64,000 nucleotides of DNA, taken from Tetradesmus obliquus (taxonomy: Eukaryota; Chlorophyta; Chlorophyceae; Sphaeropleales; Scenedesmaceae). Of this stretch, positions 20,029 through 38,553 are shown one piece after another. Position 1 is the stretch's first letter; the number at the start of each line of letters is the position of its first letter. The position numbers and the translations under genes were made by a program. Below the pieces are notes generated by a model. It was not told the DNA's origin and ran no database searches. It saw only the letters and a program-made list of their open reading frames with translations. The stretch lies in the NCBI GenBank assembly GCA_030272155.1, contig CP126195.1, positions 4,695,001-4,759,000 on the forward strand, given 5' to 3'.

Positions 20029-20335
20029 ATGGACGTCGATGATGATGACTACGAGCTGCAACTGGCCCTGGCGCTGTCCATGCAGGCAAGCAACCTCAGC
20101 AGGGCAGCAGCAGTAGCATCAGCAGCAGATCTCTTCTCACCTCGTGTGAAACATACGTCAATATCAGCGATCATAAGCTTATCAGACCTGGCGCACTTTC
20201 TTTGGTCCTGTTATGTGCTAGCAGAGCAGTGATCTTCTGTTGGGAAGTACAAACTGCTGTGCTGCAAGTACAACTCCAACATGCATGGATTGACACTGCA
20301 TATCTGCTGCTTTGGTGTTGCAGGAGGATGGTGCA
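20029..20335 (+). other. Ubiquitin-interacting motif at the N-terminus (exons 1-2)
   Basis: Exon 1 ends and exon 2 begins inside the motif: [13 protein letters not shown] joined to ED. The acidic residues, then L-x-x-A-x-x-x-S and trailing acidic residues, fit the UIM consensus (acidic patch, central Ala, invariant Ser17). It would bind ubiquitin non-covalently. The join uses a GC donor (CAG|GCAAGC) and an acceptor at 20323; the motif reads through cleanly only with that splice, which supports it. Confidence 0.75.
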
Positions 20336-21158
20336 GAGCCACAGGCAGCCCCTGCAGCTGGTGCTGCAGCAGCTGCTGCTCCGTCAGCAGCAGCAGCACC
20401 TCAGCCAGCAGCAGCAGCACCTGCTGCTGCCAGTGGTGCAGGTGCTGCAGGTGCACAAACACAAGACCTGGCTGCTGCACTGGCTGCTGCTTTTCAGGCG
20501 ATAGCAGGTACGACACTTGATCAGATCATGCAAATCATCATCATCTGCTGCCTTCTGAGTGTGCGTTGGGGCTTGTGCCAGATGCATGTCGAGGCTTCAT
20601 GAAGCATGATCATGCATGCATCTGAGCTTTTTGGTTAGTTTGGTGTAGCAGGTCCGTTGCCTGCCAGCATGCACAGCATCAGCAGTTATGTTTTGGTAGC
20701 AGTCAAAGGTGCATTGCAGTGCACGTAGCTGTACTGCAACAGTTGACTGGCCATGGTGCCCATTTCATGCTGGTGGTTGTGGCACCGCTGCATGTCTGCC
20801 ACAGGCAATGCCAGTTGTCCAAATCTTAACATCAAAGACTGGCACTGGCGGTGACCATATGTTCAGCATGCATCACCTGCTGCCGCCGCTAACACAATGT
20901 GTTGCCTCCAATGCGCAGGGGCCCAGCAACCCAATGCGCAGCAAGCGCAGCAGCAACAGCAAAATGGTGAAGTAGCACCTCCGCCTGCCTTCTTCTTCCC
21001 ACCAGCAGCACAGCAGCAAGCACAACCACAACAACAACAGCAGCAAGCGCGGCGTCCGCAGCCCCATGCAGCAGCAGCAGCAGCAGCAGTAGCAGCAGCA
21101 CGGCCCAAGACCCTTCCTCCTTGGGCAGATCAGCTAGGCGCCTGGTGGCAGCCAGGAT

Positions 21159-38100: not shown

Positions 38101-38553
38101 ACGCTGCGCTGGGCGGTGCTGGAGCTGCTAAAGAAGCCCCCGCCGGGCTTGGAGGAGCTGGTGCAGCACCACTTCAGGTGTACAGCTTGCAGGCCTGCAT
38201 TGCATGCATATCATGCGCTTGCAATGATGCGTGGATTGTCTGCATGATTGGGTTGTTGTCCCAATTGCACCATGCACTGGCGCCATGTGCTTGCTGCGCT
38301 GTACTGCCTGACACCTCCTTGCGTATGGCAGCTACTCTGCGCTGCCGCCAAACCTCCCGTCTGTGCCTGCTGCTGCTGCTGCTACCGCTGCTGCTGCTGC
38401 TGCTGTTGCTGCTGCAGGGTGCTGCGCGGTGTGTTTGCGTCGCGAGCGGGGCGTTGGCTGCGGGAGGCCGGGCAGGCCGACCCCACCGGCACCTTCTACC
38501 GGCGCATGGTGAAGGTCATGGGCGAGGTGGTGGAGCGGCTGGCAGAGCTGTGA
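20029..38553 (+). CDS. E4-E2 fusion: UIM, Ufd2/UBE4 core and BIRC6-type ubiquitin-conjugating domain
   Basis: Twenty-six exons, all in consistent phase, total 4,629 nt (1,542 aa): 20029-20085, 20324-20507, 20919-21435, 23111-23405, 23809-24027, 24333-24566, 25278-25448, 27583-27703, 28150-28525, 29046-29220, 29528-29717, 30136-30182, 30478-30540, 30815-30869, 31331-31470, 32011-32277, 33483-33623, 34311-34508, 35027-35486, 35818-35942, 36363-36463, 36751-36809, 37121-37245, 37520-37590, 38076-38177, 38418-38553. Intron 1 is GC-AG; the rest are GT-AG. Order of parts: UIM (residues 7-21), Ala/Gln-rich linker to about 250, Ufd2-type core about 253-1195, basic/acidic linker, BIRC6-like lead-in and UBC domain about 1260-1497, with active-site Cys1403 in GKVCLSLL. 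No U-box is present where UBE4 proteins end in one. The predicted role is ubiquitin-chain extension in which the scaffold carries its own E2; that is inference. Exon 4 has a second, downstream copy of its 3' end with its own donor, so its exact boundary is the least certain. Confidence 0.9.
21642..21712 (-). pseudogene. tRNA-Phe(GAA)-like gene lacking positions 8-9, in intron 3
   Basis: Read on the minus strand, the 71-nt sequence has a perfect 7-bp acceptor stem (GGCGAAA/TTTCGCC), a D arm, an anticodon loop CTGAAGA, a T arm CCCAG-TTCGATC-CTGGG and discriminator A. Two bases are missing between the acceptor and D stems (the usual U8-A9), and the anticodon stem has one T-C mismatch at its outer pair. 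This suggests a decayed copy rather than a working tRNA, although a T-run follows about 10 nt downstream. It lies antisense to the host gene. Confidence 0.7.
22173..22599 (+). repeat. Interspersed repeat family, forward copies in intron 3
   Basis: Two clear copies (about 22173-22270 and 22528-22599) share a core reading TTTTCGGGTGTTCG, then GCAACGTAGTTGCCTGTGCA, then CACCGTGTAA and a CTTCTTCTTC tail. Looser fragments with the same CACCGTGTAACCCCTCT end occur near 21815, 22735 and 22955. No coding frame is evident. This fills most of the 1.7-kb intron 3 together with the tRNA-Phe remnant. Confidence 0.7.
23575..23669 (+). repeat. Junction echo: exon 4 3' end and donor
   Basis: Second copy of the last about 85 bases of exon 4. 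It translates to [20 protein letters not shown] where the exon has [20 protein letters not shown], and is again followed by a donor (GTAAAT). It has three more codons (QRE) before ALLQAL, so it may be an alternative exon end rather than a dead copy. Confidence 0.75.
24657..24825 (+). repeat. Junction echo: most of exon 6 and its donor
   Basis: A second copy of exon 6 from AQAHAK to AAK|GT, with length changes in the Gly-rich stretch that shift its frame. It still ends in a usable-looking donor (GTGCGT). Confidence 0.75.
25006..25235 (+). repeat. Junction echoes: exon 7 acceptor side, two copies
   Basis: Degenerate copies of the start of exon 7 (GTGTCGGCAGCAGCAG ... AGCCCAGCCAC ... TTCACCTGCCT) at about 25006-25075 and 25161-25220, both upstream of the true exon at 25278. 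The second keeps a CTGCAG acceptor. Confidence 0.75.
25515..25581 (+). repeat. Junction echo: exon 7 donor side
   Basis: Copy of the last about 66 bases of exon 7 ([23 protein letters not shown]), ending in AAG|GTGAGG. It lies just past a CTG run. Confidence 0.75.
25690..27380. other. Insertion-rich part of intron 7
   Basis: Intron 7 (25449-27582) is the longest intron of the gene. Besides the inverted repeats and the tRNA it holds about 1.1 kb (26000-27100) of sequence with no gene I can recognise, then a GAAGAAGAAGAAAGAAG tract near 27100. It is probably a composite of insertions that left the splice sites untouched. Confidence 0.45.
25816..25990 (-). repeat. Same interspersed repeat family, inverted copies in intron 7
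   Basis: Two copies (about 25816-25909 and 25917-25985) are the reverse complement of the intron 3 copies; the first matches the 22173 copy over about 90 bases with only a few differences. The GAAGAAGAAG tracts here are the complement of the CTTCTTC tails there. Confidence 0.75.
27381..27454 (+). tRNA. tRNA-Ile(AAU) inside intron 7 of the E4-E2 gene
   Basis: A complete 74-nt cloverleaf: acceptor GCCCTGT/ACGGGGC (one G-T pair), D arm GCTC-AGTTGGTTA-GAGC, anticodon arm TGGTG-CTAATAA-CGCCA, variable AGGTC, T arm ATCAG-TTCGAGC-CTGGT, discriminator A. The AAU anticodon is the usual eukaryotic one for AUU/AUC, read after A-to-I editing. Internal A and B boxes are intact and a T5 run follows at 27463. 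It lies on the same strand as the host gene, 129 bp before exon 8. Confidence 0.9.
27463..27467 (+). terminator. Pol III T-run after tRNA-Ile
   Basis: TTTTT nine bases after the tRNA 3' end, the standard RNA polymerase III stop. Confidence 0.75.
28661..28797 (+). repeat. Junction echoes: exon 9 donor side, two copies
   Basis: Two further copies of the exon 9 end (GGGCTNNTGCCTGCAGTGCA then CAG|GTGGG), ending at about 28686 and 28797. The spacing between copies includes intron sequence. Confidence 0.7.
29289..29340 (+). repeat. Junction echo: exon 10 donor side
   Basis: Near-exact copy of the last 52 bases of exon 10 ([16 protein letters not shown]), again followed by GTGGGC. Confidence 0.75.
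31122..31266 (+). repeat. Junction echoes: exon 15 acceptor side, two copies
   Basis: Two copies of the exon 15 start ([10 protein letters not shown]) at 31122-31151 and 31223-31266, each behind an AG acceptor, upstream of the true exon at 31331. Confidence 0.75.
31541..31802 (+). repeat. Junction echoes: exon 15 donor side, three copies
   Basis: Three copies of the [24 protein letters not shown] end of exon 15 plus the following GTGAGAGTTCACAG intron start, at a spacing of about 100 bp. They show small indels. Confidence 0.8.
32365..32392 (+). repeat. Junction echo: exon 16 donor side
   Basis: Short copy of the exon 16 end ([10 protein letters not shown]) followed by GTGAGC. Confidence 0.7.
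32798..33427 (+). repeat. Junction echoes: exon 17 acceptor side, five copies
   Basis: Five tandem copies, spaced about 130-145 bp, of the exon 17 start (GCCTGGGC...[29 protein letters not shown]) with its preceding acceptor. They start near 32798, 32929, 33067, 33210 and 33341; the true, contiguous exon starts at 33483. Several keep an open frame. Confidence 0.85.
33747..34060 (+). repeat. Junction echoes: exon 17 donor side, two copies
   Basis: Two copies of the exon 17 end ([18 protein letters not shown]). Both are followed by GCGAGT where the true exon has GTGAGT. Confidence 0.8.
34577..34799 (+). repeat. Junction echoes: exon 18 donor side, two copies
   Basis: Copies of the exon 18 end ([20 protein letters not shown]) at 34577-34654 and 34724-34799, each followed by GTGCG. 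The second has small deletions. Confidence 0.8.
36040..36094 (+). repeat. Junction echo: exon 20 donor side
   Basis: Copy of the exon 20 end ([16 protein letters not shown]) followed by GTCCGC. Confidence 0.75.
37768..38008 (+). repeat. Junction echoes: exon 25 acceptor side, three copies
   Basis: Three copies, about 103 bp apart, of the end of intron 24 plus the first about 35 bases of exon 25 (CTGCAG|GTACAAC...GAGCT...CGGCTGC). Part of the preceding intron (GGGCACTGTA, ACTGCACCATT) is repeated with them. Confidence 0.8.

What the first reader, a model, noticed from the sequence alone, without database searches (positions are those of the whole stretch)
20029..38553. An E4 scaffold fused to its own E2: UIM, Ufd2 core and BIRC6-type UBC in one polypeptide
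Seen: one 26-exon gene in unbroken phase with Ufd2/UBE4 core landmarks (exons 9-19) followed by a complete UBC domain with active-site Cys1403 (exons 20-25). Known: Ufd2/UBE4 proteins end in a U-box that recruits an E2, and BIRC6 carries its UBC after a giant scaffold with BIR repeats. I know of no protein that replaces the E4 U-box with an E2. Inferred: a self-contained chain-extending enzyme in which the E4 core no longer needs to recruit an E2, with the UIM holding the ubiquitinated substrate.
Basis: partly seen in the sequence, partly recalled or inferred. Interest (0 to 1): 0.92.

Follow-up and report, generated by a model that had tools for sequence, protein, structure and literature searches.

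The report
Ancient overlooked E2–E4 fusion ubiquitin enzyme
A green-alga gene joins a ubiquitin-chain-building scaffold (E4) to its own ubiquitin-conjugating enzyme (E2) in place of the usual E2-docking U-box, and the same protein design turns up in other algae, a sponge, corals, molluscs and lancelets, so it looks like an old enzyme family that went unnoticed.

The parts
20029..38553 (+). E4-E2 fusion gene, 26 exons: 20029-20145, 20324-20507, 20919-21435, 23111-23405, 23809-24027, 24333-24566, 25278-25448, 27583-27703, 28150-28525, 29046-29220, 29528-29717, 30136-30182, 30478-30540, 30815-30869, 31331-31470, 32011-32277, 33483-33623, 34311-34508, 35027-35486, 35818-35942, 36363-36463, 36751-36809, 37121-37245, 37520-37590, 38076-38177, 38418-38553
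   Evidence: phases, stop; 25 of 25 GT-AG; 86% identity to P0001 from residue 580 on
20035..20082 (+). N-terminal ubiquitin-interacting motif (UIM-like), residues 3-18
   Evidence: motif read; N-terminal UIM-like motifs in several algal relatives, Pfam UIM in 5 of 23 members of A1; no Pfam UIM hit on the window protein itself
23111..25448 (+). exons 4-7: conserved helical region in front of and at the start of the Ufd2 core
   Evidence: profile of 8 algal relatives, E 1.2e-36 against best of 200 shuffles 0.061
25401..35098 (+). Ufd2P_core (PF10408), residues 564-1194, exons 7-19
35027..35486 (+). exon 19: one open exon holding both the last part of the Ufd2 core and the pre-UBC segment; no U-box between
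   Evidence: pre-UBC segment aligned to BIRC6
35363..38553 (+). BIRC6-type pre-UBC, UBC and C-terminal helices (UQ_con residues 1361-1471)
37132..37134 (+). codon of the predicted catalytic cysteine (Cys1423 in [20 protein letters not shown])
   Evidence: Cys kept in 93 of 101 fused proteins by pattern and in 7 of the other 8 by eye

Best explanation
This is a genuine single gene for an E2-E4 hybrid. It has a Ufd2/UBE4 alpha-helical scaffold whose C-terminal U-box (the part that recruits an E2) is absent, and a complete BIRC6-type UBC sits in that position. It belongs to an old paralogous family separate from ordinary U-box UBE4, with the two halves apparently inherited together. Most likely mechanism (inferred): an E1 charges the UBC on Cys1423; the core, helped in this alga by an N-terminal UIM, holds an already ubiquitylated protein, perhaps delivered by Cdc48/p97 or shuttle factors as for Ufd2; the tethered UBC then passes ubiquitin onto the chain without a separate E2. 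In many animal versions the enzyme is probably anchored in a secretory-pathway membrane, plausibly the ER, with the catalytic part in the cytosol. Shown here: sequence, domain order, predicted fold, conservation, phylogeny. Inferred: catalysis, substrates, partners, location.
For: Gene model and domains. Both domains in one exon. Predicted structure of P0001: pLDDT 82.6, pTM 0.86; residues 12-674 match Ufd2p 273-879 and 739-1015 match the BIRC6 UBC. Ufd2P_core and UQ_con in 51 of 51 rescanned relatives, U-box in 0 of 51 at E<=0.1 (23, 28). Both Pfam labels in 23 of 31 hits, 5 of 5, four of them new, and 93 of the 120 listed of 2017 hits. Transcript-level fused ORFs in other species: MMETSP P0035, EukProt TRINITY P0078, P0088, P0093, P0104. 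Core tree 100/100 for the split; a clade of green fusions plus the same genome's own UBE4 is rejected, p 9.5e-7. The UBC halves also fall in one group, 91/85. Own canonical UBE4 on contig C2. The Chlamydomonas ortholog (P0016; Cre12.g510300) is listed as 'Ubc21' among 43 ERAD-related genes, FPKM 0.11 / 0.14 / 2.14 and log2FC 3.62 under high lead (PMC7838096, section 14 read).
Against: No enzyme assay and no transcript from this organism. The Pfam UIM model does not hit the window protein. The UBC group is not strongly supported (91/85). The core tree has only seven UBE4 rows: four named fungi, two unnamed rows that group with them (one of which, P0030, ends at the start of the U-box), and the alga's own gene; there is no animal or plant UBE4. 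Chlamydomonas expression is very low without stress, and 14 of 43 genes in that table rose, so the response is not specific. One of 101 relatives (P0021) lacks the Cys in its predicted protein. The P0001 model covers the ortholog from exon 8 on, not the window protein itself.
Confidence: 0.78

Rival explanations
1. The protein is real but works mainly as an E2/E3 hybrid that starts ubiquitylation on its own substrates, as BIRC6 and UBE2O do, and uses the Ufd2-like core as a substrate-binding scaffold rather than as a chain-extending E4.
For: The UBC is closest to BIRC6, then UBE2O, by sequence and fold, and those PDB molecules are named 'Dual E2/E3' or 'E3-independent E2'. Ufd2's E2-docking U-box is gone, so the core may have been repurposed.
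Against: The core keeps the Ufd2 fold over 542 aligned residues, and UIM-like motifs in algal and pelagophyte-group members point to ubiquitylated clients, though such motifs are found in only 34 of 101 members.
Confidence: 0.3
2. The UBC is a non-catalytic, UEV-like module or has lost activity, and the protein is a ubiquitin-binding scaffold.
For: Pfam's UEV model hits weakly (0.021; 12 of 23 members; 27 of 28, best 2.8e-07). Baseline expression in Chlamydomonas is very low.
Against: UQ_con scores far better than UEV in every per-protein table seen (first members of 79 and 83). The Cys is kept in 100 of 101 fused proteins (93 by pattern, 7 by eye), and the Asn of the NPN motif before it is invariant in both alignments.
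Confidence: 0.05
3. Two neighbouring genes (a UBE4 remnant and a UBC) were wrongly read as one.
For: No cDNA from this organism. Two tRNA genes lie in introns and tandem copies of exon ends lie in introns.
Against: Exon 19 carries both parts. Single ORFs with both domains occur in transcript assemblies of other species (P0035, P0078, P0088, P0093, P0104) and in 101 predicted proteins from distant lineages. The exon joins agree with P0001 from exon 8 on, apart from one 22-residue insert.
Confidence: 0.02
4. Similar fusions arose several times (in green algae, animals and stramenopile-like protists) or spread by gene transfer, rather than descending from one old event.
For: Distribution was sampled only in part. 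The UBC group is only 91/85. Few UBE4 sequences were available for the core tree.
Against: All 31 fused cores in the tree form one clade (100/100), and green, animal and pelagophyte-group members form their own clades inside it. A G-x-D-V-D motif in the core is invariant in the 23 members of A1 and the 28 of A3; yeast Ufd2 and the alga's own UBE4 read differently there. (P0099, in neither alignment, has N for G.)
Confidence: 0.1

Closest known systems
Ufd2p / UBE4A / UBE4B (U-box E4 enzymes)
   Different: No U-box; a UBC domain in its place. A separate U-box UBE4 exists in the same genome, and cores of the two kinds form separate clades.
BIRC6 (BRUCE), dual E2/E3
   Different: The long BIRC6 chains in the PDB list are 4859-4898 aa; here the scaffold is a Ufd2 core, and no BIR domain was found by Pfam.
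UBE2O and UBE2Z
   Same: Same wider class of large-UBC enzymes.
Chlamydomonas 'Ubc21' (Cre12.g510300)
   Same: It is the Chlamydomonas member of this family (P0016, CHLRE_12g510300v5).
   Different: The paper lists it by its UBC domain only (PF00179) and lists 'Ufd2' (Cre09.g398350, PF10408) as another gene; the fusion is not remarked on in the passages and section seen.

Membership tests
U-box E4 (Ufd2/UBE4) | Ufd2P_core domain | tested here: met
   E 9e-83; 51 of 51 relatives
U-box E4 (Ufd2/UBE4) | C-terminal U-box | tested here: not met
   No U-box hit on the window protein at E<=1; 0 of 51 relatives at E<=0.1; none of the 21 U-box matches scored in the own genome lies on contig C5
U-box E4 (Ufd2/UBE4) | Ufd2-type fold of the scaffold | tested here: met
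U-box E4 (Ufd2/UBE4) | chain elongation on ubiquitylated substrates | not testable with these tools
   needs biochemistry
Active E2 (UBC) enzyme | UBC fold | tested here: met
Active E2 (UBC) enzyme | catalytic cysteine | tested here: met
   Cys1423; 93 of 101 by pattern, 7 of the remaining 8 by eye
Active E2 (UBC) enzyme | HPN-type asparagine before the cysteine | tested here: met
   NPN in the window; the last N of the motif is invariant in A1 and A3
Active E2 (UBC) enzyme | E1-dependent ubiquitin thioester | not testable with these tools
   needs biochemistry
BIRC6/BRUCE | BIR domain (feature recalled) | tested here: not met
   no BIR among the 3 Pfam matches of the window protein at E<=1, nor among the families listed for 51 relatives at E<=0.1
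E4-E2 fusion family proposed here | Ufd2P_core followed by UQ_con in one protein, no U-box | tested here: met
E4-E2 fusion family proposed here | core falls in the fused clade, not with UBE4 | tested here: met
   100/100, against seven UBE4 rows; AU p 9.5e-7

The most novel reading that the evidence does not exclude
An ancient class of ubiquitin enzyme, plausibly present near the root of eukaryotes and kept in green algae, some stramenopile-like algae and many invertebrates, carries its own E2 on an E4 scaffold. In many animals it would be a membrane protein with an EF-hand on the luminal side, so that calcium in the secretory pathway (likely the ER) could control extension of ubiquitin chains on the cytosolic side, much as STIM proteins (recalled) couple luminal calcium to a cytosolic effector. 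It may have been missed because common model organisms appear to lack it; that absence was not tested here.
Probability: 0.35. Interest if true: 0.92.

Novelty: new variant of a known kind. Interest (0 to 1): 0.84.

Why it matters
E4 enzymes are thought to depend on a U-box that borrows an E2, and E2/E3 hybrids were known from BIRC6 and UBE2O. A family that builds the E2 into the E4 scaffold gives a one-protein system in which chain extension, linkage choice and substrate holding can be studied without guessing the partner E2. It also adds a ubiquitin enzyme to animals such as Nematostella and amphioxus, where database entries call it 'uncharacterized protein', or 'E4 A-like' and 'E4 B-like' in a sponge and a coral. 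The predicted membrane anchor and EF-hand of many animal forms make a testable link between the secretory pathway and ubiquitin-chain building.

Tried and rejected
Rejected: two merged genes (exon 19 spans the junction; transcript ORFs in other species). Rejected: a fusion made within green algae from their own UBE4 (AU p 9.5e-7). Rejected: a hidden U-box between or after the domains.

Led nowhere: BLASTP of residues 1-560 with low-complexity masking against 19 relatives gave no hit at 1e-3, so I used a profile of 8 relatives, which did match. A second structure job on the sponge protein P0065 was sent without an alignment by oversight and gave a useless model (pLDDT 42.1); I drew nothing from it. 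The search for E1 (PF09358) in the own genome found one partial match, which does not say whether a UBA6-type E1 exists. Pfam gave no UIM on the window protein. In shuffled sequences my UIM pattern appears in 11.3 of 101 proteins against 34 of 101 real ones, so single UIM calls are soft. The TM call is a Kyte-Doolittle threshold, not a trained predictor: it marks 13 of 18 named animal proteins but also 10 of the other 83 fused proteins, at least some of which (P0040, P0051, P0110) look like ordinary buried helices. The Pfam EF-hand hits shown protein by protein lie below the curated cut-offs.

No paper describing the fusion appeared; the library lacks most subscription journals. Seen by passages only: PMC7838096 (plus section 14 in full), PMC5303827, PMC4327156, PMC3087547, PMC6548493, PMC11354881. 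The other listed papers were seen only as search listings. [quoted passage not shown] and PMC6548493 reports a snail ufd-2 in which only Ufd2P_core was detected, again without naming a UBC.

Limits: only the best 120 of 2017 hits were listed, so absence from vertebrates, insects, nematodes, fungi or land plants was not tested. The count of 101 fused proteins rests on precomputed Pfam labels; 51 of them were rescanned. The core tree used 30 of the 101 plus the window, and 7 UBE4 rows (5, of which P0030 ends at the start of the U-box; yeast Ufd2; the own C2 gene). The UBC tree used the same 31 and 14 unfused UBCs (12 of the 27 unfused rows, P0024, human BIRC6).
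Full report
What is in the window. The window lies in a 104.7-Mb, 17-contig genome (contig C5:4695001-4759000). I rebuilt the gene from the raw sequence with GT-AG borders and matching phases: 26 exons, 20029-38553, 1562 aa, TGA stop. Exon GC is 0.647 and intron GC 0.550.

Domains. Pfam finds Ufd2P_core at residues 564-1194 (9e-83) and UQ_con at 1361-1471 (2.6e-20), and no U-box. Exon 19 (35027-35486) is one open exon that begins with the last part of the Ufd2 core and ends in the pre-UBC segment that also aligns to BIRC6, so the junction does not rest on a splice choice. 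The cysteine of the UBC lies in [20 protein letters not shown], residue 1423.

Support for the model. Residues 580-1562 align with P0001 at 86% identity; gaps fall in low-complexity stretches, and at the exon 18/19 join P0001 carries 22 extra residues. Exons 4-7 match a profile of 8 algal relatives (1.2e-36; best of 200 shuffles 0.061). Exon 1 carries a UIM-like motif that Pfam does not score; exons 2-3 are low complexity. BLASTP of residues 1-560 with masking gave no hit in 19 relatives.

A separate ordinary UBE4 in the same genome. PF10408 hits fall in two places only: 3 of 12 on C5 (this gene) and 9 of 12 on C2:4798566-4803529. The best U-box match of the genome, 98.8 bits, lies right after the latter at C2:4804028-4804243; of 21 U-box matches none is on C5. 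The fusion is thus an extra paralog, not a replacement. A search with this UBC found much weaker matches elsewhere (best 41 bits, 39% identity, on C4).

Distribution. (words from the core to the UBC): 23 of 31 hits carry both domains, with names from Chlorophyta including Chlamydomonas, Volvox, Trebouxia, Bryopsis and Myrmecia, plus Chrysophaeum taylorii (a pelagophyte, recalled); several rows are unnamed. (profile): 5 of 5, one of them P0023 again. (Bryopsis UBC part): 2017 hits, 120 listed, 93 of these with both domains. Eighteen of the fused rows bear animal names: Branchiostoma (3), Actinia, Nematostella, two corals, eight molluscs, Lingula, Owenia and the sponge Dysidea. Altogether 101 distinct fused proteins by precomputed Pfam labels. 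One is an MMETSP transcript with a complete ORF (P0035), and four are TRINITY transcripts of EukProt (P0078, P0088, P0093, P0104), so the fusion exists in assembled transcripts of other species. Pfam scans of 51 of these found both domains in 51 of 51 and a U-box in none at E<=0.1.

History. In a tree of Ufd2 cores (38 rows, 693 columns) the 31 fused cores form one side of a branch at 100/100 and the 7 UBE4 rows the other; the alga's own U-box UBE4 falls with the fungal rows. The animal clade and the pelagophyte group have 100/100 and the green clade 100/98. Forcing the green fusions together with the alga's own UBE4 costs 69 log-likelihood units (p-AU 9.5e-7). The UBC halves also form one group against 14 unfused UBCs, with weaker support (91/85). 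The simplest reading is one old fusion whose parts then travelled together. Caveats: the UBE4 set has four named fungi, two unnamed rows grouping with them (P0030 ends at the start of the U-box) and one green gene, and no animal or plant UBE4; three fused rows have long branches.

Catalytic residues. The cysteine is kept in 93 of 101 by pattern. By eye, 7 of the other 8 keep it within a changed surrounding motif; one (P0021) does not, in what looks like a gene-model break. The last N of the NPN motif is invariant in both alignments.

N-termini differ by lineage. UIM-like motifs occur in 34 of 101 against 11.3 in shuffles, N-terminal in many algae and inside the core in 4 of the 5 pelagophyte-group proteins. 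In animals, 13 of 18 named proteins have a strongly hydrophobic 19-residue segment within the first 300 residues; the same threshold marks 10 of the other 83 fused proteins. Of the five animal proteins without it, three are short models (730-809 aa) and two begin with sequence like that just after the segment in the others (by eye). Nine of the 18, all among the 13, carry an EF-hand-like loop ([FY]-D-x-[DN]-x-[DN]-G) in the first 80 residues, between a signal-peptide-like start and the segment (by eye). Pfam EF-hand_1 hits 5 of 28 members of A3 (best 0.0002); the hits shown are below the curated cut-offs. This predicts a membrane anchor with the enzyme in the cytosol; it is a prediction from sequence only.

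Function. Ufd2p adds K48-linked ubiquitin to K29-linked chains with Ubc4 as E2, and its U-box is essential (PMC5303827, passages). Solved entries show Ufd2/Ubc4-Ub with K29-linked chains (titles). In the fusion the E2 is built in, so the likely job is chain extension on ubiquitylated clients without recruiting an E2 (inferred). The Chlamydomonas ortholog appears as 'Ubc21' in a table of ERAD-related genes and rises from FPKM 0.11 to 2.14 under high lead, alongside 'Ufd2' (0.07 to 2.68). This is weak support for a stress or ERAD role, since 14 of 43 such genes rose.

Novelty. Ten searches of open full texts found no account of the fusion. A survey of animal U-box ligases states that all Ufd2p-related proteins have the core N-terminal to a U-box, though a figure legend mentions 'UBE4-like' genes of different structure (PMC3087547, passages). 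A survey of ubiquitin-system evolution has no occurrence of Ufd2 in its main text (PMC4327156, passages). Database entries do carry both Pfam labels, so the architecture is visible but seemingly undescribed. I call it a new variant of a known kind: E4 scaffold plus E2/E3-hybrid logic, joined in a way not described in what I could search.

Noticed in passing
1-16708: Tandem array just upstream of the gene: five copies starting at 1, 4283, 7845, 12127 and 16409, spacing 4282 with one shorter step of 3562; the 300-nt pieces compared are 100% identical. ORFs of 336 and 317 aa recur four times; the first of each has no Pfam match at E<=0.01.
   Followed up: partly
27381-27454 (+) and 21642-21712 (-): Two tRNA genes nested in introns of the fusion gene: tRNA-Ile (AAT) in intron 7 and an Rfam tRNA on the opposite strand in intron 3 (only; ARAGORN did not list it).
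   Followed up: no
31544-31841, 32792-33569, 34434-34801, 37754-38113: Tandem copies of exon ends or exons (units of about 98, 132, 146 and 103 bases) reaching into introns of the gene. The Scenedesmus protein P0001 has a 22-residue insert at the exon 18/19 join, where one such array lies.
   Followed up: partly
45713-49450: LTR-retrotransposon-like ORFs: aspartyl protease (45713-46660) and RNase H, integrase and chromodomain (47468-49450).
   Followed up: no
35162-35194 (linker, residues 1216-1226): Basic [11 protein letters not shown] stretch in the core-UBC linker, with similar basic stretches in other algae (KRRKS, KRQRVS); possibly a nuclear localisation signal, not tested.
   Followed up: no
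P0091, P0111, P0133, P0136: Another large-UBC architecture by Pfam label: SPRY (PF00622) plus UBC in one protein; P0091, P0111 and P0133 group together (with P0096) near this UBC in the tree.
   Followed up: no
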